Origin: Providencia manganoxydans
GTDB lineage: Bacteria; Pseudomonadota; Gammaproteobacteria; Enterobacterales; Enterobacteriaceae
Length of the DNA: 64,000 nucleotides
Direction of reading: 5' to 3'
Assembly: GCF_016618195.1 (NCBI RefSeq)
Contig: NZ_CP067099.1
Location: 2,480,001 to 2,544,000, forward strand
The notes beneath the pieces were generated by a model, which saw nothing but the letters and a program-made list of their open reading frames with translations, was not told the origin of the DNA and did no database searches. This document shows positions 5,295 to 63,900 of this stretch, piece after piece. The first letter of the stretch is position 1, and each line of letters starts with the position of its first letter. The translations under genes were made by a program, and so were the position numbers.

Positions 5295-5882
5295 TTATGA
5301 CTTGAGAGACTTCCATTTTTCATAGGTCAGTGCAGTTAATACGTGATCACGCCACTGACCATCAATTTGCAAATACTGTTTTGCGTAACCTTCACGTTCA
5401 AAACCAAGGCGGGCCAACAAATCACCGCTACGTATATTATGCGGCATATAATTTGCCATAATACGATGTATTCCTTGATGTTGTTGCATATAGCGAATCG
5501 ATTGTACTAGGGCTTCATACATCAATCCCTGTCCTTGCCATTTTTCACCCAATGAATAGCCTAAATAACAAGCATGGAAAGCGCCACGTAATACATTGCT
5601 GAAATTCGCGACCCCCATCACTTCATTTTCTTGGCTATCTAACAATAAAAAATGAAATGCATTACCTTGACGATGCAATTCTGACATCAGTTGTAAACGA
5701 TTATTCCAACTAGATGGATTAAAATGCGAGCTATCTCGGGTTGGCTCCCAAGGCTTTAAGAAGTCTTTATTTTCGCTGTAATAATCGGCTAATCGATAAC
5801 CATCACGCTCATATGCCAACCTTACAACCATTCTTTCTGTCACAAGACGTACTTTAGGCTCATTTGATCGATAACCAAACAT
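5295..5882 (-). CDS. rimJ: Ribosomal protein S5 alanine N-acetyltransferase RimJ
   Basis: 195-residue GNAT-fold acetyltransferase that acetylates the N-terminal alanine of ribosomal protein S5. The N-terminus ([18 protein letters not shown]) and the acetyl-CoA region around [13 protein letters not shown] (residues 110-125) match RimJ, and the length fits E. coli RimJ (194). It lies 90 bp upstream of murJ on the same strand and is divergent from mdtH, recalling the E. coli mdtH-rimJ-murJ neighbourhood. Confidence 0.95.
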
Positions 5883-11864: not shown

Positions 11865-11873
11865 ATCGAGTTA

Positions 11874-13358
11874 TTAATGATTAATAATCCAAATCACTTT
11901 TGTCTGTGTATATTGTTCGAAGGCCTCTAGCCCATTATCTTTACCTCCGAACCCTGATTGCTTAAATCCACCAAATGGTGTGGTGATGTTACCTTCGCTA
12001 AACCCATTTACAGAAACTGTACCTGCGTTAATTTGACGGGCAACTTTCATAACACGATGCACATTTTGACTATAGAAAGAAGCCGCTAATCCATAATGGG
12101 TGTCGTTGGCTAATGCAATAGCTTCTTCATCGGTAGAGAAAGTGGATACCGCAAGCAAAGGACCAAACACCTCATTCTTAAATAATGACATCTCTGGGGT
12201 CACATTATCGAAAATGGTCGGTTCAATGTACCAACCGCTGCCTAATTCACTGTGAATTTTTCCTCCAGAGACAATTTTTGCGCCCTCCTTTATAGAAACA
12301 TCAATAAATGACTTCACTTTTTCAAAATGCGCTTTTTCAACCATAGGACCGATAGACACTGAATCATCCATTGGATTACCGACTTTCCAGCTGGTGCTTG
12401 CAGCGATTAATTTATCCAATAGCGATTGGCGAATGCTTTCATGGACAATCAGGCGTGACCCACAACTACAGTTCTCACTCATATTCCAAAATGCAGCGGC
12501 CATAATATGTGGAACCGCAGCATCAAGATCGGCGTCGGCAAACACGACTTGTGGACTCTTACCTCCGCACTCTAATACGATCTCTTTTAAATTGCTTTCG
12601 GCAGAGTATTTAAGAAATAAACGGCCTACCTCGGTAGAGCCTGTAAATGAAACGATATCAATATCCGCATGGCGGCCAATGGCTTCACCGACCTTTTCGC
12701 CTAAACCACACACTAGACTCAGAGCACCTTTCGGTACACCTGCCTCATAAGCTAGTTCAACCATACGATACGCGCTCAGAGAGGTTAACTCGGCGGGTTT
12801 TACTATTACAGAGTTCCCTGCTGCTAAGGCCGGCGCGACTTTCCAAGCAAACATTTGTGCGGGGAAGTTCCATGGTAATACTGCCCCAACTACACCGATA
12901 GGCTCATGAACAATCAATCCAAGCTCTTGCTGACCAGTGGGCGCCACTTTGCCAAACATTTTATCTAGCGCTTCTGCATACCAATAGAATGTTTCAATGG
13001 TTGCTGGCATGTCTGTATTTAAGCATTCCGTGATTGGTTTGCCTGCATCGACACAATCTAAAGCCGCAAGCTCTTCACTGTGCTGTTCAATTAAAGTCGC
13101 CCAACGCAACATCACTTGTTTACGTTCCTGAGGCGATAAATTTTTCCAATCACCTGAAATAAAAGTATTTCTCGCTACTGTAACCGCAGCATCAACGTCG
13201 GCGGCTTGTCCATCAGCGATATAACCGATCACGCTATCATCAATAGGGGTACGATTTTCCAGTTTTGCACCACTATCCTGATAATTTTCGATAAGGCAGC
13301 CAGCCCAAAGTTGGCCGCCTTTAGCTCGTTCAAATACCTGCTCTTTTGTTATTTTCAT
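11874..13358 (-). CDS. Aldehyde dehydrogenase, probable 2-oxoglutarate semialdehyde dehydrogenase
   Basis: About 494-residue NAD(P)-dependent aldehyde dehydrogenase. The fold signatures are VLPWNFPAQM (oxyanion Asn), FTGSTEVGRLF (cofactor loop), LECGGKSPQ (catalytic Glu) and NCSCGSRL with the catalytic Cys. In bacterial hydroxyproline catabolism the last step oxidises 2-oxoglutarate semialdehyde to 2-oxoglutarate, and this gene directly follows the deaminase, so that substrate is inferred. The start at 13358 gives the best spacing from GGAGGG; an ATG at 13373 overlapping the upstream stop as ATGA is also possible. Confidence 0.8.
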   Translation of the reverse strand: MKITKEQVFERAKGGQLWAGCLIENYQDSGAKLENRTPIDDSVIGYIADGQAADVDAAVTVARNTFISGDWKNLSPQERKQVMLRWATLIEQHSEELAALDCVDAGKPITECLNTDMPATIETFYWYAEALDKMFGKVAPTGQQELGLIVHEPIGVVGAVLPWNFPAQMFAWKVAPALAAGNSVIVKPAELTSLSAYRMVELAYEAGVPKGALSLVCGLGEKVGEAIGRHADIDIVSFTGSTEVGRLFLKYSAESNLKEIVLECGGKSPQVVFADADLDAAVPHIMAAAFWNMSENCSCGSRLIVHESIRQSLLDKLIAASTSWKVGNPMDDSVSIGPMVEKAHFEKVKSFIDVSIKEGAKIVSGGKIHSELGSGWYIEPTIFDNVTPEMSLFKNEVFGPLLAVSTFSTDEEAIALANDTHYGLAASFYSQNVHRVMKVARQINAGTVSVNGFSEGNITTPFGGFKQSGFGGKDNGLEAFEQYTQTKVIWIINH

Positions 13359-54706: not shown

Positions 54707-55042
54707 TGAGTGATATCAATCGCTGATAGTGGTGGCAAAGCCATCACTATTTTTTCAGCTTCATACCTTTAATTTCCTCAACACCGACTATATCTCATCG
54801 AGTTAGTTTTAAACTGCATTGATAATATCCTAATTGTAGAACGAAAATGTTATACAACAATCTACTCACCATACTTCGAGATTGGAGGAATTGGCTCAAT
54901 AAGCTTGCGATGATTATCCAGAGCCAAGTGACGGGTACCGTTGCGCGAGTGACGGCGAAAGAAAAAGAGTCAATATTCTGTATTTAACGCCGTACTGATA
55001 GGGTGCAACCTGCCAACACAGTAACTATACGAGGTAGGCATT
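54707..55042. other. Gap before the symE remnant
   Basis: About 336 bp without a supported gene. From 54980 the sequence is homologous to the symE upstream flank at 57231-57302 (TGTATTTAACGC, then GTGCAACCTGC). The preceding 54870-54979 stretch, slightly GC-richer, reads like degraded coding DNA but cannot be identified. Confidence 0.5.
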
Positions 55043-55267
55043 ATGGCTAAGCGCGATTGTAATGTAAAAACATAAGCAGCTAAAGAAGAAGTGGTCAAAA
55101 CCAGATGATATTCAGTAGGTTACTTGCCGAACCGAGGTAAAACCAACCCTAGCCCACAGCTGATTATCAGCGGTAAGTGGTTGAAGGAACTGGGGTTTGA
55201 GGTGGGAACCCACTATACCCTCACCCGCCAAGCCGGACAGTTGATTACCCGGTTGGTTGAGGAATGA
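55043..55267 (+). pseudogene. Decayed symE-like toxin gene
   Basis: The frame from ATG reads MAKRDCNVKT, TAA (55073-55075), AAKEEVVKTR, TGA (55106-55108), then YSVGYLPNRGKTNPSPQL onward to HYTLTRQAGQLITRLVEE. It aligns codon for codon with the intact symE at 57303-57530 apart from the two stops and missing final residues. SymE proteins are AbrB-fold type I toxins. With two in-frame stops this copy is inactive. Confidence 0.9.
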
Positions 55268-55286
55268 AGTAGAGTAGATAAGGGAT

Positions 55287-55313
55287 ATCCCAGCGTAGGG
55301 CTGGGATTTTTTT
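55287..55313 (+). terminator. Terminator between symE remnant and orphan immunity gene
   Basis: Stem ATCCCAGC / GCTGGGAT with a GTAGG loop and seven Ts. It parallels the terminator after the intact symE. Confidence 0.85.
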
Positions 55314-55316
55314 GAA

Positions 55317-55766
55317 TTAGGTATCAGAATAAAGATCTTGGATGTAACGCTCGACAAATGGCTTTAATTCATGACATGGATAAGGTTCTTTATCTTGAAT
55401 TAAATAAGCGTCATCATAAATTACTCTTGAATTCAATGAGCTAGATATTATATATAAAATTAAAACTGAAAACTTTAAGTTAGTATCACCTCTTGTGGAA
55501 ACACTTCCCATGAATGGATACTCTATATCTTCTGCATCACGAAGATTTTCTTCAATAAAATTGAAACTTACCCAACAAAAATAATTATATTCGTGATCCT
55601 GTATATAGATAAACTTATCAGCTAAGTTTAGTCCTTTTTTAGCAGATATACCTATAGTTAATTGTTTTGTAGACAAAGAAAAATAATTAAAACCATCGAC
55701 GATATTATTAAGAATATCTTCAAATTGAGGAAGTTTTTTAATTGGAAATAGAATTTCGTTAGACAT
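55317..55766 (-). CDS. Probable orphan CDI immunity protein
   Basis: 149-residue acidic soluble protein not recognised as a named immunity family. Its ATG overlaps the stop of the orphan toxin tail as TAATG, with GGAGGAAAG upstream: the usual coupling of cdiI to cdiA. Aromatic and acidic content (FCWVSFNFIEENLRDAEDIEY) fits a small immunity protein. The function rests on position. The convergent symE remnant follows after 50 bp. Confidence 0.72.
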   Translation of the reverse strand: MSNEILFPIKKLPQFEDILNNIVDGFNYFSLSTKQLTIGISAKKGLNLADKFIYIQDHEYNYFCWVSFNFIEENLRDAEDIEYPFMGSVSTRGDTNLKFSVLILYIISSSLNSRVIYDDAYLIQDKEPYPCHELKPFVERYIQDLYSDT

Positions 55767-57230
55767 TACTTTCCTCCATTTGTGCTAATTGAGCCACTTG
55801 TAACATTAAGCCAACCATCTTGAGTTTTTATGTAAATATTATTTACAGTGCCTTCTTTTGGAATATTGCTAACTGGAGATCCAGGTTTAAAGTGTTCAAT
55901 CATTTCTTTCATGCTTACACCTGTTTTAGATGCATCCACATACAGATCCCCTTGATAGCCTGCTTTTTGCATATCTTTGGCACCGCTAACAATATTGCGC
56001 CTAACAGCGTTGATACTCTGTCCTTCTACTAATTTCAATTGAACCGGGACACCATCTAACCATCCATCTATTCCTTGGAAATTTTCTTTTTCAACTCCTT
56101 TAAAATCACCACCCTTATATTTAACAATATCTAATGCTTGCTGGTATTCATGAGGCTCTAATGCATTCTGTATAACTGTTCCTTGTTTTCCGTTAGGTAA
56201 CTTAAGGACATCTTTACCTGAGTTTATTGCTGTTGGCTCAGCACTCGTTAACTAATTTAAGTTAATCTTCCCTGCTTTAATTTCGGATTGAATAACTTGC
56301 TTAGTCGTTGATACTTCTTGAGCTGTTTTACCGATAATCAATGCACCGCCGGCACCTGTTCCGCCCGGTGTCGCTACCTCCGCAGTAAATATACCCACTT
56401 CATTCAAACATATTACAGGGGCAGCTTTACAGCCTGTTAAAGCTGCTCGAACAGTTGCTACCATTTCTGGTGCAATAACTAATGAGTAACCAGCAGCAAC
56501 GATACCCATTGTCGCGCCAGACACAACTAAATTACCATTATTAATACCTTTAGTTATGTCTGCCTTACAATTTTGATCGCAGTCTTTGACATCTGAAAGC
56601 CAGAGCCCTAGATCTCCCCCAACCATACCCATCGAATTATTCTCAACCGTTGTCTTCCCTGCCTCTGCGGCATTGGCTGCACTTGAACTATCTCCGACTA
56701 CTAAACCACCTGCTATCCCTGCTGCTAAGCTTGCAAAAGCACTGACTGTCGCTTTTTCTTCTTCACTCAGCTCACTTGGCTGTTTATGATATAACTCTTG
56801 TGACAGCATGCCTACTGCTTCCGCTGTCATTGCCCCTAAAGATTGCGCTCCCGCATTTTCACCTTTTGGCCAGCGCTAATGCAGTGTTCGCGATTCCATG
56901 TGCAATAATCCGCCCTTCTTTGTTGTCGTCAGGAATGGCTTTGGCTATCTCATTCGCAATGTACGGTGCACTCGCATTCGCTACCGCTTTGTTGACATCT
57001 CCACTGATAAGCCCTTGAATTAACGCGGTTCCCGACTCCACTATTCGACGATTATCACCACCGACACCCCATCCTAACGCTTGTACCGCTTTTTCAATAC
57101 GATCATTGAGTACTGCATCTCGAATCGCTGTTTCGTCCTCTTTTAGGTTCGGATCTTTGATTGAATCTATCGCTTTCTCGCGTTCATCCTTTGTTATTGG
57201 CGTTTTATCAAAATTCGCTCTTTCAGCCTT
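55766..57230 (-). pseudogene. Orphan CdiA C-terminal toxin cassette, broken
   Basis: A second, 5'-truncated copy of the CdiA 3' region. 56637-57230 duplicates 58907-59499 almost exactly (pretoxin domain through the VENN motif). An extra T in the run at 56864-56867 shifts the frame relative to the parent. After VENN the sequence diverges into a different tail, interrupted by a TAG at 56252-56254 and resuming as KDVLKLPNGKQGTVIQNALE to the end SGSISTNGGK. The tail contains FQGIDGWLDGVPVQLKLVEG, recalling the D...QxK core of PD-(D/E)XK nucleases. No start codon or secretion signal belongs to it. Confidence 0.82.
56637..57230 (-). repeat. Duplicate of the CdiA pretoxin region (copy of 58907-59499)
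   Basis: 594 bp nearly identical to 58907-59499; by eye only scattered substitutions and one inserted T. It ends on one side at the VENN codons and on the other at ...GCTCTTTCAGCCTT, where the symE upstream flank (GTATTTAACGC) begins without a spacer. This is the recombination footprint of the toxin cassette. Confidence 0.9.
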
Positions 57231-57302
57231 GTATTTAACGCAGTGCTGACAGAGTGCAACCTGCAAACACCGCTAACCACAGCAACTAAAGGACTAGTCC
57301 CT

Positions 57303-57530
57303 ATGGCTAAGCGCGATTGTAGTGTAAAAACACCGACAGCTAAAGAAGAGACGGCAAAATCAAGACGATATTCAGTGGGTTACTTACCGAACAACGGTAA
57401 GCCCAAACCCAGCCCGCAACTGACCATCAGCGGTAAGTGGCTGAATGAGTTAGGGTTTGAGGTGGGCAGTCACTATACCCTCATCCGCCAAGCCGGACAG
57501 TTGATTATCCGGCTGAGTGAGGGGGAGTGA
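57303..57530 (+). CDS. symE: SymE-family type I toxin
   Basis: 75-residue protein starting MAKRDCSVKTPTAKEE. The core RRYSVGYLPNNGKPKPSPQL followed by TISGKWLNELGFEVGSHYTL resembles SymE, an AbrB-fold RNA-cleaving or nucleoid-binding SOS toxin whose E. coli form is silenced by antisense RNA SymR. It is shorter than E. coli SymE (113). An open extension of 20 residues upstream is not conserved with the other copy. It converges with cdiI. An antisense RNA over 57250-57330 is expected from the family but no promoter could be assigned. Confidence 0.85.
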   Translation: MAKRDCSVKTPTAKEETAKSRRYSVGYLPNNGKPKPSPQLTISGKWLNELGFEVGSHYTLIRQAGQLIIRLSEGE

Positions 57531-57540
57531 GGTAGATAAA

Positions 57541-57570
57541 AGATCCCATTGTATAACTGGGATCTTTTTT
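57541..57570 (+). terminator. symE terminator, shared with cdiI end
   Basis: Stem AGATCCCA / TGGGATCT with a nine-base loop, then TTTTTT. The cdiI stop codon (57569-57571) lies in the T-run. Confidence 0.88.
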
Positions 57571-58027
57571 ATTTAGATATCAAGCTACAACGAGATAAAT
57601 AGCCATTCTGTTTAAATTGAAAATTCAAATCATAATTTTTAAATTGATACTTAATCCAACTATCAATATAACCAAGAAGCATATCCATTTTTCCGCCCCC
57701 CGTAAGTGATGGTTCTCCTAACGTTTTCAGGATATTTTCTTTATCCCATCCAGCACAGATATCAGATATTAGCTTACCTTTATACTGACCATAGCCTTCC
57801 TCATCATTAAAATAAAAATGGATATGGTTTAATATGTTTCCTCTAAAACCTATCTCTATACCTGAATGAATGAAGCTGTAGTATTTGGTTCTTCCAATAG
57901 GATCATTATGTTCTATTGGGTCAATGGATATATTCACATCTTCATTTATAGATAAACAAAGGTTCTTAACCTCTTGTGAAGTCTCACTTTTACCAAGTAT
58001 ATCAACGAATTCAGCCCACTCTGTCAT
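57569..58027 (-). CDS. cdiI: Probable CDI immunity protein
   Basis: 152-residue soluble acidic protein not recognised as a named family. Its ATG shares the A of the cdiA stop (TAATG), the usual CdiA-CdiI coupling. Features include YSFIHSGIEIGFRGNILNHI near 50-69 and GYIDSWIKYQFKNYDLNFQF near 118-137. It would neutralise the EHDH-type toxin tail of the adjacent CdiA. It shares no obvious similarity with the orphan immunity protein, as expected for a different toxin. Confidence 0.78.
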   Translation of the reverse strand: MTEWAEFVDILGKSETSQEVKNLCLSINEDVNISIDPIEHNDPIGRTKYYSFIHSGIEIGFRGNILNHIHFYFNDEEGYGQYKGKLISDICAGWDKENILKTLGEPSLTGGGKMDMLLGYIDSWIKYQFKNYDLNFQFKQNGYLSRCSLISK

Positions 58028-61000
58028 TATTTAGTCACTCCTTTTTCCTGATTTCGTTCTATTATTTTTTTAATTGCATCATCAACCAGTTTAGGGTCAT
58101 AACCACGATTTACCATATTTTGTCTTAATGCCTCAGTATCACGACATTGTGCCCCACAAAGATCAGCGGCATCCTTTTGTACTTGAGTTGCCGAGTTTTT
58201 CCCTTTGTACGTAGGCCCTGCTGCATGAACATCTTTAGGAACTTCGACAGCTGTTGCATTATTGAACAGTTTATTTGATTCTTCTTTCGTTAAAGGCCTT
58301 CCTAACTCAGTCTCTTTTGCTTTCTTTAATGCTGCAAAAGATGGTATATGGTCATGTTCTAATCCATCACCAACTTTTGAACGATCTTTTAACTCTTTAT
58401 ACGAACCAACATCAAGAGGCTTAACAGCTTCCTGCGATTCTTTATCTTGTTCTTTTTGTTGAGTTCCTTTTTTATTACCGCCTTTAATTCCTAAAGACGA
58501 TACCCCTGAGCCAGGCAATGAACCTTTAATGCCTGAGTTCTCTACAATCTCTTTTCCTTGGAGTGCCACTTTCGCAGTGAGCGATAATGACTGATAAATT
58601 TCTTGGGCGCTTTGTGCGCTTTCCGCTTTCACAAAATTGACAAGCTGGGCGCGATCTTCTGAACTCAGGTCATCAAAAAGGCCTGATATTTTCAAAGCAT
58701 CGGCAACATTGACACCGCCGTTTAGTTCTTCCCATGCACCGATGGCATCAAAAGAATCGCCATCTTTAATTTCAGCAATGGCTTTATCTCTATTTTCCTT
58801 GCTGATTTTACCGTACTTGTCGTAAATGCCTGTTTTATCTGCGCCAGTCTTATCCGCTTCTTCAAGCTCTTTTTTCATGTCTACGACATTTTGAGAGCTC
58901 AGATAGTTATTCTCAACTGTTGTCTTCCCTGCCTCTGCGGCATTGGCTGCACTTGAACTATCTCCGCCTACTAAACCGCCTGCTATCCCTGCTGCTAAGC
59001 TTGCAAAAGCACTGACTGTCGCTTTTTCATCTTCACTCAGCTCACTTGGCTGTTTATTATATAACTCTTGTGACAGCATGCCTACTGCTTCCGCTGTCAT
59101 TGCCCCCAAAGATTGCGCTCCCGCATTTTCACCTTTGGCCAGCGCTAATGCAGTGTTCGCGATTCCATGTGCAATAATCCGCCCTTCTTTGTTGTCGTCA
59201 GGAATGGCTTTGGCTATCTCATTCGCAATATACGGTGCACTCGCATTCGCTACCGCTTTATTGACATCTCCACTGATAAGCCCTTGAATTAACGCTGTTC
59301 CCGATTCCACTATTCGACGATTATCACCACCGACACCCCACCCTGACGCTTGTACTGCTTTTTCAATACGATCATTGAGTACTGCATCTCGAATCGCTGT
59401 TTCGTCCTCTTTTAGGCTCGGGTCTTTGATGGAATCTATCGCTTTCTCGCGTTCATCCTTTGTTATTGGCGTTTTATCAAAATTCGCTCTTTCAGCCTTA
59501 GTCGCTTCTATACGTTTTTCCGTCACCGCTATATCAGTAATCTGCTTGCCAAGCTCCCCGACTAACTGCGTTTTCTCTATCCGTTTTTGCTCTTTTTCTT
59601 TGTCAAAGATCGGATTGAGCTTCTCATGAGCATTGTCAGTATCACGGCTTAATTCTTTGATATCTTGTTTTTGATTGTCCTTATCGCGAACAATAATTTC
59701 ACCTTCCGATACCGCCGAATGCGTGGTGTTGCTGTCTTTGCCTTTATTATTCACATTGGTCAGCAATGAACCCGCTGCATTACCGGCAAGTTGGTCTGTA
59801 AACGGTGTTCCCCCTGAACTAAAGCCACCACTTTGGCTATCGACCTTATACTCAGCTTTGTTTTTGATATCCCCAAAGCCCAGCGTACCCGTATCCAGTT
59901 TATTTTTATTTGCGTCAGCAGTACTGCTAATCACCGCACCATCAAGTTGCGTATGATCGCCAACCGTAATGTCAAAACCGCCTTTGCCCGCGTTGATACC
60001 CGTTTGTCTATCCACCGATTGATAGTCGCTATGCATTTCGGTTTTGTTGGCATTCAGCGAAACAGTAGTATTCAACCCAGTTCCTATACTGCCAGAAATG
60101 CTGCCACTCTGTTGCTTCGAATCATATTTATCCGTAGCTTGCTGGCTCGATAAGGTTAAATCACCGCCCACATTAGCTTTCACGCTCTCGCCACTGACTT
60201 GAGCACCTGTTAGCGTGGTATCTTTCCCGCTATTGAGCGTCAGTTGTTTACCCGCATTCACTTCGGTATCGGTGTAGAACTGGCTGTTACCTTTTTCAAA
60301 ACCATTGCCTTTGTTTACACTCGCATTCACGTTCCAACCGCCAGTGCTAATACCCGCGCCAATTGAACTGCCTTTGCTTTCGTTTTTACCATCCACGGTT
60401 TGCGTATTGGTAGCACTAGTCAGGTTAATATCATTTTTCGCGGTCAAAGTAATATCTTTACCCGCATCTATTTGGCTGCCTTGTACCGTTAAATTACCTT
60501 GGCTACCCTCTTTTTTGCCTGTCGCCGTGAAGTTTATATTATCGCCAGCGCTCAAGTTACTGCCTGATGCGGTATTTTGCTCTGTCTTAGTGACTGATTT
60601 TGAGGAGCTACTGCCATAAGACACGTTTACACCAAAGGCATCAGTAACACTACTGCCTTCTTTAATCCCAGCTAATTCACCTGCTTGCTTGGCTTGAACA
60701 CCTTGTAAACCTGCCTTCATCCCTTTAAGTGCTGCTAATTGACCGTCATCTTCTTCTTTCGCTGACTTTGCCGTCTGCACCATACCATCTAACAAACTAC
60801 CCGCAGTACCGCCTAGCGATACAGTCAAACCACTTGATTTAGTTTCTACCGTTGTAATATCTGTACGGCTATTTTCAGCTGCGCTGATGTTGACATCACT
60901 ACCTGTAACATTGATATCTTTTGCTGCAATAATATCACTACCATGAATATTGGTAGACCCACCAGCAGTTAAGTTCACATCACCTGCGGTGCTACCAATC

Positions 61001-63900
61001 ACGCTCCCTTTTTTCAGGTTGCTTTCGCTGTCAGTGGTAACCTTTTGCGAATTTGAACCAACCGTGAAGCCTAAGCCCCCGGTGCCCATCAACCCTGACT
61101 TGGTCGTTTTCGACATGTGGGTTTCATGTAACGCTTCGTCCGAGGTCGTGACATTCAGTTGATTTTCGGCATTAACACTAACATCATTTGTTCCAAGCAC
61201 ATTACTACCAGCAATATTGACGTTATTTCCTGCCTGCATACCCACACTATCACCGCTAAAAGTGCTACTAATAGCAGTACGTTCATTCACTTCATCATGA
61301 GTTTCTTTGGTGCTACTGGATAAGAAACCTTTATCAGTATGCTTAGTGTGTTTCGCATATTCATTGGTTTCAACACCAGATGTGATATTGATATCGCGCC
61401 CAACATTCACTGCGAGCGCACCACCACTAGATACATTTGCCGCTCTCGCCGATAAGTCTTGCCCCGCAGATAACGTTAAATCACCCTTGGTGTGAATTTC
61501 TGTACCCACTTCTGTGCCATTAGCACCACGATAGTAATTGGTGGAATTATGGGTGTAATCAAATGCTGAGCTGATATCTCTTGTCTCTAAACTGATATCA
61601 CGGCCTGCAATGATCGAGGTTTTACCTTCGACACCTAAATTGCCAATTTCAGTTGCAATCAAATTGATATCTTGCACCGCTTTTAAGGTCAGTTGCCCAT
61701 TCTCACCTGTCACATAAATACTGGCAGGACGATCAAGCCATTCGGATTTACCATCACTACGCTGTACTGTTTCACTAAGAATATCGCGTCCAGCTGAGAG
61801 TGATACACTGTCTAATCCACGTATCTCACTACTTATATTTTTAATGTCTTTCAAGGCATTGAGCTGTACATCCTTACCTTGGATCCGCCCGCTATTTTCA
61901 ATATTCTCAGCGCGTAAATCAGTCAGTTCACGGCTACTGACTTCTCCACTATTTAGAATATTACCCGTCATATTGGCTGATACATTGCGTCCAGCCAGTA
62001 ACGCTCCATTACCGTTTAAATCACCTTGGCGAGCGCGGACATACACTTGCGGCACACTGACCATCTCAACTCGGCCATCCGGTAAAGTAACCTCTTTGTT
62101 AACCATCCACACAATATCGGTAGTCAAGTTCGCCATTTGTTCAGGAGAAAGCGCGATACCCGGCGTCAAGTTAAATTGTTGACCAAATGCAACACCATTA
62201 GTCAGTAAGGCGCGATACTGTTCTTCATCGCTGCTGTAGTTACCCAGTAGGCGTTGCCCTGTGGTTTCAATTAGCTGGTCGCGCACTAAACGCTGCTCAT
62301 AATAACCATCACCTAAGCGTTTATGCAGTTGATCATTAGAGACAATATCAATACTTGAAAGCCATTTTTTATAATTCGTGAATCGGGGATCCGTTTCGAT
62401 AAGAAATTGGCTATCACTACCCGGCGTCAGATTAAATAGACTGTTATCAGGCAATTTAGTATTCGGCTCAACCGTTCTGATCACTGTATCGAGGTTATCT
62501 TTACCTTCAGGGGTATGCTCTACCGTAACATCTTGCCCTTTGCCGGCATCGCTTTGCCCTTGAACATCAATATGATTAGCGATATTCGCATCATCCACTT
62601 GAGTGGCTGTCACGGATTTATCATCGGCAACATCCACTTCCTTAGTAATGGATGGAAGTGGTGTCACCTCGGCCTGTTGACCAGCAGAAAGTTCCAAAGG
62701 TGTATGTTTACTGTCTTTTAAGACTGCTTCAGTCAGTATCACACCTTGATTTTCGTTTAGCGTTGAATTAGCAACTTCCCCCGCTTTGCCATCGAGTTGA
62801 TAGACTGTTCTGTCATCCAACTTAGGTTTGCCTGTACTTCCTGCCTGTTCAGTGACTTCTAATAAGTGCAGAGGTAAATCTTCTTCGCTGTTTACTCCTT
62901 GGTAAGCATAGACTGATTCACGCGTTTTCCATTTTCCACCACCTTTATAGCGATAAATCGTATTACCACTTTCCACAGTGCGGCGAATACCTTGCTCTTC
63001 TTGGTTATTGAGCGCATAGCCAGTTAAAATCAGATTTTGTCCCGCCACCACGCGAGAATTTTCGTTATTAAGTTGTTGCCCATCAATTGTTAAATGTTTA
63101 CCGCTCGTGACTAGTGCGGCATCCCGCTGGATGACCTGTGTTTCATAAACAACACGGTCGTAATCATATTCATAGAAGTCTTTTGTCCAATTGCCATTTT
63201 CGAACATCCGCCAGCGGTTCGATTTTTCATAATGGATACCAACTTCTTTATTTAGAGTACCATCATCATTGATAGCATAGCGGGTATCGTTACCATTACG
63301 TGGCTGAATTTTATAACGTTTACCATTTCCAAAATCAAACCAATCAAAATGCTCTCGGCTCACTTCAACAGGTTTTGCTGTGAGTTGTAAGTGAATATCT
63401 TTATTTTCAAGAAACGCTGTTTTTAATGTCAGATCTTCAGCTGCTTCAATGTTTTCGCTTTGATTTCTCACACTCTTAGCATGGCCTGATGCTTGCAGCT
63501 GGTCATTAAGCGTATTACCGATAGTTAAATTACCATCACTGTAAATCAATGCGTGATCACGGTTTAATAGCTCAGAAACTGCAATATGGGTTTCTTTACG
63601 CCCAGCAATTACTGCGGCCTTATCGCCTTGTTTATCATTTAATAAAGTATTAGCCGCAATAGCGAGGAAATCACCATAAATACGCCCTGTTCTTAGGTTA
63701 TCTAATGTATTGGTCGTGATATGTATTAATCCACCATCTATTAACCCTGTATTAATCACCTGTCCACTGGCTTTAATACGTGTGTTTTGCCCACTAATCT
63801 CACCAGCAAGTTGGTTAACTACCGTCGTCGTGGTTAAAACAAGATCACCAAGGCTAGAAAATAATCCATCAAAACCAAAACATTTATCGAGAGCAGCAGA
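58027..63900 (-). CDS. cdiA: CdiA/filamentous haemagglutinin-like toxin protein, N-terminus missing
   Basis: Open frame of about 1,957 codons; the first candidate start is a GTG at 63759 (1,910 residues). An in-frame TGA at 63901-63903 bounds it, so no signal peptide or TPS secretion domain belongs to this frame. Residues 1-900 carry FHA-type haemagglutinin repeats (AGRDI, SAGQDL, NINAAE-like motifs), 900-1400 further adhesin repeats, about 1420-1614 the pretoxin domain, VENN at 1615-1618, then a 296-residue C-terminal region. It ends in a domain with LEHDHIPSFAALKKA (EHDH at 1801-1804), suggestive of an HNH/His-Me nuclease. Without its N-terminus it may be a silent or fragmentary allele unless the stop is a sequencing error. 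Confidence 0.85.
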   Translation of the reverse strand, partial: SAALDKCFGFDGLFSSLGDLVLTTTTVVNQLAGEISGQNTRIKASGQVINTGLIDGGLIHITTNTLDNLRTGRIYGDFLAIAANTLLNDKQGDKAAVIAGRKETHIAVSELLNRDHALIYSDGNLTIGNTLNDQLQASGHAKSVRNQSENIEAAEDLTLKTAFLENKDIHLQLTAKPVEVSREHFDWFDFGNGKRYKIQPRNGNDTRYAINDDGTLNKEVGIHYEKSNRWRMFENGNWTKDFYEYDYDRVVYETQVIQRDAALVTSGKHLTIDGQQLNNENSRVVAGQNLILTGYALNNQEEQGIRRTVESGNTIYRYKGGGKWKTRESVYAYQGVNSEEDLPLHLLEVTEQAGSTGKPKLDDRTVYQLDGKAGEVANSTLNENQGVILTEAVLKDSKHTPLELSAGQQAEVTPLPSITKEVDVADDKSVTATQVDDANIANHIDVQGQSDAGKGQDVTVEHTPEGKDNLDTVIRTVEPNTKLPDNSLFNLTPGSDSQFLIETDPRFTNYKKWLSSIDIVSNDQLHKRLGDGYYEQRLVRDQLIETTGQRLLGNYSSDEEQYRALLTNGVAFGQQFNLTPGIALSPEQMANLTTDIVWMVNKEVTLPDGRVEMVSVPQVYVRARQGDLNGNGALLAGRNVSANMTGNILNSGEVSSRELTDLRAENIENSGRIQGKDVQLNALKDIKNISSEIRGLDSVSLSAGRDILSETVQRSDGKSEWLDRPASIYVTGENGQLTLKAVQDINLIATEIGNLGVEGKTSIIAGRDISLETRDISSAFDYTHNSTNYYRGANGTEVGTEIHTKGDLTLSAGQDLSARAANVSSGGALAVNVGRDINITSGVETNEYAKHTKHTDKGFLSSSTKETHDEVNERTAISSTFSGDSVGMQAGNNVNIAGSNVLGTNDVSVNAENQLNVTTSDEALHETHMSKTTKSGLMGTGGLGFTVGSNSQKVTTDSESNLKKGSVIGSTAGDVNLTAGGSTNIHGSDIIAAKDINVTGSDVNISAAENSRTDITTVETKSSGLTVSLGGTAGSLLDGMVQTAKSAKEEDDGQLAALKGMKAGLQGVQAKQAGELAGIKEGSSVTDAFGVNVSYGSSSSKSVTKTEQNTASGSNLSAGDNINFTATGKKEGSQGNLTVQGSQIDAGKDITLTAKNDINLTSATNTQTVDGKNESKGSSIGAGISTGGWNVNASVNKGNGFEKGNSQFYTDTEVNAGKQLTLNSGKDTTLTGAQVSGESVKANVGGDLTLSSQQATDKYDSKQQSGSISGSIGTGLNTTVSLNANKTEMHSDYQSVDRQTGINAGKGGFDITVGDHTQLDGAVISSTADANKNKLDTGTLGFGDIKNKAEYKVDSQSGGFSSGGTPFTDQLAGNAAGSLLTNVNNKGKDSNTTHSAVSEGEIIVRDKDNQKQDIKELSRDTDNAHEKLNPIFDKEKEQKRIEKTQLVGELGKQITDIAVTEKRIEATKAERANFDKTPITKDEREKAIDSIKDPSLKEDETAIRDAVLNDRIEKAVQASGWGVGGDNRRIVESGTALIQGLISGDVNKAVANASAPYIANEIAKAIPDDNKEGRIIAHGIANTALALAKGENAGAQSLGAMTAEAVGMLSQELYNKQPSELSEDEKATVSAFASLAAGIAGGLVGGDSSSAANAAEAGKTTVENNYLSSQNVVDMKKELEEADKTGADKTGIYDKYGKISKENRDKAIAEIKDGDSFDAIGAWEELNGGVNVADALKISGLFDDLSSEDRAQLVNFVKAESAQSAQEIYQSLSLTAKVALQGKEIVENSGIKGSLPGSGVSSLGIKGGNKKGTQQKEQDKESQEAVKPLDVGSYKELKDRSKVGDGLEHDHIPSFAALKKAKETELGRPLTKEESNKLFNNATAVEVPKDVHAAGPTYKGKNSATQVQKDAADLCGAQCRDTEALRQNMVNRGYDPKLVDDAIKKIIERNQEKGVTK
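58907..59499 (-). repeat. CdiA pretoxin region duplicated at 56637-57230
   Basis: Parent copy of the duplicated segment. It lies inside the long open frame and reads without interruption (TKAERANFDKTPITKDE to GKTTVENN). Confidence 0.9.

What the first reader, a model, noticed from the sequence alone, without database searches (positions are those of the whole stretch)
54980..59499. Tandem CDI toxin-immunity cassettes, each closed by a convergent symE
Two units of the same design follow each other: CdiA 3' end, TAATG-coupled immunity gene, convergent terminator, convergent symE. The pretoxin segment is duplicated (56637-57230 and 58907-59499), but the toxin tails and immunity genes differ. The CdiA homology stops at 57230 and symE-flank homology starts at 57231, with no spacer. 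This suggests whole units are copied or exchanged between VENN-side CdiA homology and symE-flank homology, with symE acting as the second recombination arm. CDI orphan cassettes are known; symE as a fixed unit boundary is the less described part.
Basis: partly seen in the sequence, partly recalled or inferred. Interest (0 to 1): 0.78.

Follow-up and report, generated by a model that had tools for sequence, protein, structure and literature searches.

The report
SymE genes cap bacterial toxin-immunity units
In this Providencia-like genome and many relatives, units that each carry a weapon against rival bacteria and its antidote end in a small, opposite-facing symE gene, a recurrent layout that the papers found here mention only in passing and that may help show how such weapons are swapped.

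Summary
In detail: two cdiA-3'/immunity units lie in tandem, each closed by a convergent symE, with a duplicated pretoxin (96% identical). Corrections: the locus is a relic. The main cdiA lacks its 5' half and no cdiB was found, the orphan cdiA fragment is frameshifted and interrupted by a stop, and the outer symE has a premature stop. The 'symE flank' starting at 57231 is the SymR antisense antitoxin RNA; the junction is its terminator end.

The pattern is general. The same genome has an Rhs locus with seven symE-capped units. In 24 genus genomes 31 of 33 pretoxin-VENN matches have an opposite-strand symE within 3 kb downstream. In the wider family 29 of 58 sampled genomes show it. No nearest core within 3 kb 3' or 600 bp 5' of a symE was on symE's strand.

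The CdiA-side junction varies, so no fixed recombination site is supported. Cassette (toxin+immunity) and symE are seen both travelling together and separated; whether symE is a recombination arm stays open. Array-linked symE mostly lack the LexA-like boxes of stand-alone symE, yet show purifying selection.

Verdict: real; a new variant of known CDI/Rhs orphan arrays.

The parts
58027..63759 (-). 3' part of main cdiA (haemagglutinin repeats, PT-VENN, toxin tail CT1); the gene lacks its 5' half and no cdiB was found
   Evidence: ORF; Pfam Fil_haemagg_2 and PT-VENN; tail similar to TseN, PDB 9j9w, E 6.6e-12; truncation
57569..58027 (-). immunity gene cdiI1, TAATG-coupled to cdiA
   Evidence: no family match; function inferred from position
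57539..57567 (.). terminator hairpin between symE2 and cdiI1
   Evidence: read by eye; loop of 9 exceeds the scanner's limit, so not listed; hairpins of the same kind at other units
57303..57530 (+). symE2, open, convergent to cdiI1
   Evidence: Pfam SymE_toxin; genome search
57231..57315 (-). SymR2 antisense RNA: two hairpins, 3' end exactly at the junction with the orphan cdiA fragment
   Evidence: Rfam RF01809 35 bits; fold z -5.2; own covariance model 86 bits (a training row)
56637..57230 (-). duplicated cdiA pretoxin fragment of the orphan unit; frameshifted near 56866-56876
   Evidence: repeat of 58907-59499, 96%; PT-VENN
55766..56636 (-). orphan toxin tail CT2, with a stop at 56252-56254
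   Evidence: no Pfam or PDB match for 55769-56248
55317..55766 (-). orphan immunity gene cdiI2, TAATG-coupled
   Evidence: one NCBIfam match far below its cut-off; no PDB match
55287..55307 (+). terminator hairpin between symE1 and cdiI2
55043..55267 (+). symE1, pseudogene with an in-frame stop
   Evidence: (stop inside the match)
54980..55055 (-). damaged SymR1 (loses the fold: z +0.8)

Best explanation
The window holds a decayed array of CDI toxin-immunity units. Each unit is: a cdiA 3' fragment up to VENN, a variable toxin tail, its immunity gene, a terminator, and a convergent symE, here with its antisense RNA SymR. The unit therefore ends where SymR ends. Shown: the layout in the window, in a seven-unit Rhs array of the same genome, and in many enterobacteria, with fixed orientation. 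Inferred: new cassettes enter the 3' end of the main toxin gene by homologous recombination in the core/pretoxin, and the far side joins at or beyond symE. The older cassette, with its own symE, is pushed downstream as a silent orphan with a leftover core fragment. Repeated core fragments, and perhaps symE, then let cassettes be reshuffled. The array symE is a recruited copy that mostly lacks LexA-like boxes. Its protein shows purifying selection, most likely as a unit-linked type I toxin that disfavours loss of the unit; this last step is the least certain.
For: Own genome: 9 SymE matches, 2 in the window and 7 in an Rhs array of one main gene and six fragment-toxin-immunity units. Genus: 71 of 77 symE convergent to a core or VENN, nearest core codirectional in 0; 31 of 33 PT-VENN and 22 of 53 Rhs-core matches have a convergent symE within 3 kb 3'. 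Family: 29 of 58 genomes sampled. Named loci: 47 of 57, in Providencia, Proteus, Dickeya, Lonsdalea, Pectobacterium, Photorhabdus and others, partly the same genomes. Displacement: P. dispersa main unit of L114 is an orphan in L113, 96.2% over the aligned unit, symE windows 95-96%. SymR: 10 of 28 pairs with compensatory changes. Selection: median dN/dS 0.25 over 690 non-independent pairs. LexA-like boxes in 3 of 114 array-linked and 19 of 32 other symE; without the genus 3 of 54 and 19 of 30. On the SymE tree the CDI/Rhs/alone labels cluster (12 changes, shuffled mean 49.8), with at least 4 changes forced for each label.
Against: Many array symE cannot be working toxin-antitoxin modules. 11 of 56 full-length genus copies have stops. 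Of 25 symE next to a long core, 9 are full, open and have an upstream start, and 4 have a recognised SymR; of the other 54, 17 and 8. 31 of 53 Rhs-core matches in the genus lack a convergent symE within 3 kb, and one of these has a same-strand symE as its nearest, 2.6 kb away. Half of the family genomes sampled show their symE elsewhere. The dN/dS may reflect ancestors outside arrays. Relatedness makes the Fisher test and the counts non-independent. The tree rests on 51 columns. No expression or recombination was measured.
Confidence: 0.6

Rival explanations
1. symE is the second homology arm: double crossovers between the core/pretoxin on one side and symE on the other swap only toxin and immunity.
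For: 108 of 19,503 unit pairs have symE 3' parts >=90% identical beside immunity genes scoring under 50%; 10 of them also share the flank beyond symE. Of 106 such pairs re-aligned, homology ends between 10 bp before and 50 bp after the symE stop in 87. The opposite is also seen: 34 pairs with the same immunity gene but symE under 90%. Several P. dispersa blocks end at the symE 3' end.
Against: The best-resolved exchange (L113/L114) is bounded by VENN repeats on both sides and carries symE along; 21 unit pairs share both symE and immunity. PHI finds no recombination inside symE in CDI (44 rows, p 0.95) or Rhs (12 rows, p 0.93) sets; the own-array set of 6 rows gives p 0.03, and power is low over 150 bp. 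In the window pretoxins are 96% but symE copies only 80% identical. A slow symE next to fast-changing immunity genes gives the same table; pairs are not events.
Confidence: 0.35
2. symE/SymR is an addiction module that stabilises each unit against deletion between the repeated core fragments.
For: SymR is conserved and structured; SymE protein shows purifying selection; several symE lineages sit at the same place and orientation, with repeated label changes on the tree.
Against: SymR is recognised at 45 of 114 array-linked symE; many copies lack a start or carry stops. Several symE copies in one array could protect each other. E. coli SymE is known (recalled) as SOS-induced, not as an addiction toxin.
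Confidence: 0.25
3. Passive hitchhiking: an ancestral symE lay downstream of a toxin locus and has been copied with the units ever since, with no role.
For: Many broken copies; in the window one symE is a pseudogene.
Against: CDI and Rhs arrays of this genome carry different SymE lineages (29-32% identical) in the same position; labels change at least 4 times on the tree, as gains or losses; dN/dS well below 1.
Confidence: 0.2
4. Transcription insulation: the convergent gene and its terminator stop read-through, or the antisense SymR promoter drives the next orphan immunity gene.
For: Fixed orientation; similar terminators at the seam; SymR faces the next orphan unit.
Against: SymR ends in its own hairpin at the junction; many units lack SymR; promoter-like sites are no more frequent than in shuffles (8 found, 8.5 expected).
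Confidence: 0.1

Closest known systems
CDI orphan cdiA-CT/cdiI arrays (Poole 2011, PMC3150448; PMC4927057; PMC6336857; passages seen)
   Same: Tandem displaced toxin-immunity modules with cdiA fragments containing VENN, downstream of cdiBAI; displacement and recombination at VENN already proposed.
   Different: The passages seen mention transposase and integrase genes between modules; the term symE has 0 occurrences in PMC4927057 and PMC3150448 is not among the papers holding symE and CdiA. Here nearly every genus CDI unit with VENN ends in a convergent symE.
Rhs orphan toxin-immunity modules
   Same: Core-fragment + toxin tail + immunity units; the same genome has a main gene and six such units.
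   Different: Each is closed by a convergent symE of another SymE lineage; 31 of 53 genus Rhs cores lack a convergent symE within 3 kb.
SymE/SymR type I toxin-antitoxin (E. coli; Pfam PF08845, Rfam RF01809)
   Same: SymE domain and two-hairpin antisense SymR.
   Different: No LexA-like box at 111 of 114 array-linked copies; linked to toxin units; often 5'-truncated.
Proteus mirabilis BL95 CDI cluster (PMC11278526, passages seen)
   Same: cdiA-cdiI on the reverse strand, a forward symE, then orphan modules on the reverse strand.
SymE genes beside Vorin/T6SS in Erwinia (PMC7764402, passage seen) and in hecA and Rhs-containing loci of Dickeya (PMC8386352, passages seen)
   Same: In Erwinia, two symE on the reverse strand downstream of a toxin gene; in Dickeya, symE between hecA parts.
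   Different: Single-locus remarks; no unit-boundary pattern stated in the passages seen.

Membership tests
CDI (cdiBAI) locus | CdiA with haemagglutinin repeats, pretoxin VENN and variable tail, followed by an overlapping small gene | tested here: met
CDI (cdiBAI) locus | complete cdiA and an upstream cdiB | tested here: not met
   CdiA homology ends near window 63900; next genes zinT, phoH, endonuclease I; largest ORF in the next 12.6 kb 392 aa. Remnant of a CDI locus.
Orphan cdiA-CT/cdiI module | displaced cdiA fragment with VENN + tail + small downstream gene | tested here: met
   56637-57230 duplicate with PT-VENN, CT2 and cdiI2
Orphan cdiA-CT/cdiI module | toxin neutralised by its cognate immunity protein | not testable with these tools
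   no assay; no Pfam or PDB match for the immunity genes
SymE/SymR type I toxin-antitoxin | SymE domain protein | tested here: met
   PF08845 51 bits, cut-off 29
SymE/SymR type I toxin-antitoxin | antisense SymR RNA over the symE 5' end | tested here: met
   symE2: (Rfam score below gathering; expression not shown); symE1 damaged
SymE/SymR type I toxin-antitoxin | LexA control (recalled for E. coli) | tested here: not met
   window symE copies are not among those with an A+T-rich CTG-N10-CAG box within 200 bp 5' of the SymE domain
SymE/SymR type I toxin-antitoxin | SymE toxic when SymR is absent | not testable with these tools
   needs expression

The most novel reading that the evidence does not exclude
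Enterobacteria have repeatedly recruited SymE-type toxin-antitoxin genes, stripped of SOS control, as the standard 3' cap of polymorphic toxin cassettes (CDI and Rhs alike), so that toxin, immunity and symE form one self-stabilising exchangeable unit.
Probability: 0.35. Interest if true: 0.8.

Novelty: new variant of a known kind. Interest (0 to 1): 0.62.

Why it matters
How toxin-immunity pairs are gained, kept and shuffled in CDI and Rhs loci is a long-standing question. A recurring gene at the far end of the variable cassette, shared by two unrelated delivery systems and in one orientation, gives a landmark for finding orphan units that annotation misses. It also makes the recombination model testable strain by strain, and it gives most array-linked symE genes a context other than the SOS response.

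Tried and rejected
A fixed recombination site at the symE end: rejected, because CdiA-side starts and symE-side flanks vary. The conserved flank as a new antitoxin or recombination site: it is SymR. Recombination inside symE: no PHI signal in the two larger sets. E. coli strains sharing this CdiA core: no megablast match. A structured RNA in the 135-bp pre-VENN element: almost no consensus fold (-3.2 kcal/mol). LexA control of array symE: mostly absent. A promoter reading into orphans: promoter-like sites are not above shuffles. The genome-wide SymR search at E<=0.1 is only weak support: 7 of its 9 matches lie at symE 5' ends, but it missed the window's own copy and its controls rang in three unrelated genomes.

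Rows dropped before counts: two symE of L035 that repeat L034; symE under 25 bits of my model or under 40 bits or 5'-incomplete; symE with under 2 kb 3' (2 of 79 genus symE; 11 of 68 named loci). dN/dS used 45 of 56 full-length copies (those with stops left out) and 690 of 990 pairs (dS 0.1-1.5). The 60 family loci are a listed match, mostly the first listed, from 60 of the 97 positive genomes; 58 entered the one-per-genome count. The match list was cut. L024 and L118 carry identical units and both entered the 198-unit table. The named loci come from 80 candidate stretches and in part repeat the G genomes.
Full report
What is there. On the minus strand a cdiA 3' part (58027-63759) with haemagglutinin repeats and PT-VENN is followed by a TAATG-coupled immunity gene (57569-58027), a hairpin terminator, a convergent symE (57303-57530), a second cdiA fragment (56637-57230), a second toxin tail and immunity gene (55317-55766), a terminator and a second symE (55043-55267). 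The pretoxins are 96% and the symE regions 80% identical. The main tail resembles TseN (PDB 9j9w, E 6.6e-12).

It is a relic. The main cdiA has 1957 open codons where many relatives have about 3900. Homology to relatives' CdiA ends near window 63900; the next genes are zinT, phoH and an endonuclease I gene, and the largest ORF in the 12.6 kb fetched is 392 aa, so no cdiB is seen. The orphan cdiA fragment is frameshifted and interrupted by a stop. The outer symE has an in-frame stop.

The junction. The 'symE flank' is SymR. Rfam RF01809 matches window 57308-57237 antisense at 35 bits (below gathering). A genome-wide search at E<=0.1 gave nine matches in six of 24 genus genomes, seven of them at symE 5' ends; it missed the window's copy, and its controls rang in three unrelated genomes, so it is weak support. 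The window RNA folds into two hairpins (z -5.2); the outer copy does not (z +0.8). In 11 aligned copies 10 of 28 pairs, all in the second hairpin, have compensatory changes. A model built from them finds 13 full-length matches in 33 window and genus sources, 11 of them its own training rows (new: 65.7 and 29.7 bits), and 68 matches at E<=0.5 in 76 other sources. The junction at 57231 is the SymR 3' end. Elsewhere the CdiA-side start varies (about residues 1201-1207, 1232-1234, 1246, 1255-1259, 1328-1330, 1416-1420, 1447), and the symE side falls into SymR, partial-SymR, pre-VENN-element and directly fused classes.

How general. The same genome has an Rhs locus with seven symE-closed units, a main gene and six fragments. 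In the genus 17 of 24 genomes have SymE. Of 77 symE with room, 71 face a CdiA/Rhs core or VENN within 3 kb; no nearest core 3' (0 of 55) or within 600 bp 5' (0 of 41) is on symE's strand. Conversely 31 of 33 PT-VENN and 22 of 53 Rhs-core matches have an opposite-strand symE within 3 kb 3'; one Rhs match has a same-strand symE as nearest, 2.6 kb away. One PT-VENN miss (G020) has a weaker symE found by my own model; the other is a 22.9-bit match in another long frame of the own genome. In the wider GTDB family 97 of 198 genomes have SymE, and 29 of 58 sampled have the arrangement. In the order sample 11 of 197 genomes have SymE; of 21 further symE fetched there, 11 have it. Among named loci 47 of 57 with room do, none codirectional; these repeat some of the G genomes.

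Movement. Six Pantoea dispersa plasmid loci allow strain comparison. The main unit of JL.02bL (L114 11340-13832) is an orphan in ESL4 (L113 5276-7819), 96.2% in global alignment, with its symE at 95-96%. The ends of that block are VENN repeats. A block of ESL4 including its main unit lies downstream as orphans in strain Lsch (L112 8710-12151, 96.1%). Other blocks stop at the symE 3' end. Over 198 units, 108 pairs share symE at >=90% beside immunity genes scoring under 50%, 21 share both, 1 is intermediate, and 34 share immunity with symE under 90%. In 87 of 106 re-aligned pairs homology ends between 10 bp before and 50 bp after the symE stop. PHI shows no recombination inside symE in the two larger sets; the six-row own array gives p 0.03. 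Cassette and symE are thus linked but separable; whether symE is an arm is open.

What symE may do. Among 45 intact genus copies, median dN/dS is 0.25 (690 pairs), yet 11 of 56 full-length copies have stops, and of 25 symE next to a long core only 9 are full, open and have an upstream start. A+T-rich CTG-N10-CAG boxes occur upstream of 3 of 114 array-linked and 19 of 32 other symE (Fisher p 1e-12; outside the genus 3 of 54 and 19 of 30, p 1.5e-8; not corrected for relatedness). SymR does not differ (45 of 114 and 14 of 32). That LexA controls E. coli symE is recalled. The SymE tree (51 columns, many forks open) clusters the labels CDI, Rhs and alone: 12 changes, shuffled mean 49.8, with at least 4 changes forced for each label, as gains or losses. 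This suggests repeated recruitment or loss. A unit-linked, non-SOS type I toxin is my preferred role, with low certainty.

Known or not. Orphan CDI/Rhs modules, their displacement and VENN recombination are in print (PMC3150448, PMC4927057, PMC6336857; passages). SymE at such loci was noted singly in P. mirabilis (PMC11278526), Dickeya (PMC8386352) and, beside a T6SS toxin, Erwinia (PMC7764402); passages only. Searches for SymE with CdiA, Rhs and orphan, CDI, polymorphic toxin, immunity genes and Rhs, and SymR listed no paper that, in the passages I saw, states the general pattern; not every listed paper was opened, and most subscription papers are not held.

Noticed in passing
L020:6510-6639; 19 matches in 7 of 24 genus genomes; copies also in L068, L056, L090: A conserved ~135-bp element runs up to the VENN codons of many orphan units (GTTGTTGTTGAGAATAAC), between symE and VENN. 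Almost no consensus fold; origin unknown.
   Followed up: partly
L010:1-18204 (in G000:C1:2897000-2916999): Rhs array with seven symE-capped units; repeated Rhs fragments 98-99% identical while 300-nt windows over symE are 62-94%; two different fragment start points.
   Followed up: partly
L114:11723-11809 and 11871-11954 (same in L116, L117): Two SymR-like RNAs in tandem next to one symE, possibly a footprint of repeated unit insertion.
   Followed up: no
L036, just past the SymR ends near 5731 and 16181: Two units continue with a similar TGTCCACTCCCC-type sequence that looks like an insertion-sequence end (by eye).
   Followed up: no
L019-L020 (G008:C1:962000-1001800): One CDI locus with 14 SymE matches in about 26 kb, the most at one locus.
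   Followed up: partly
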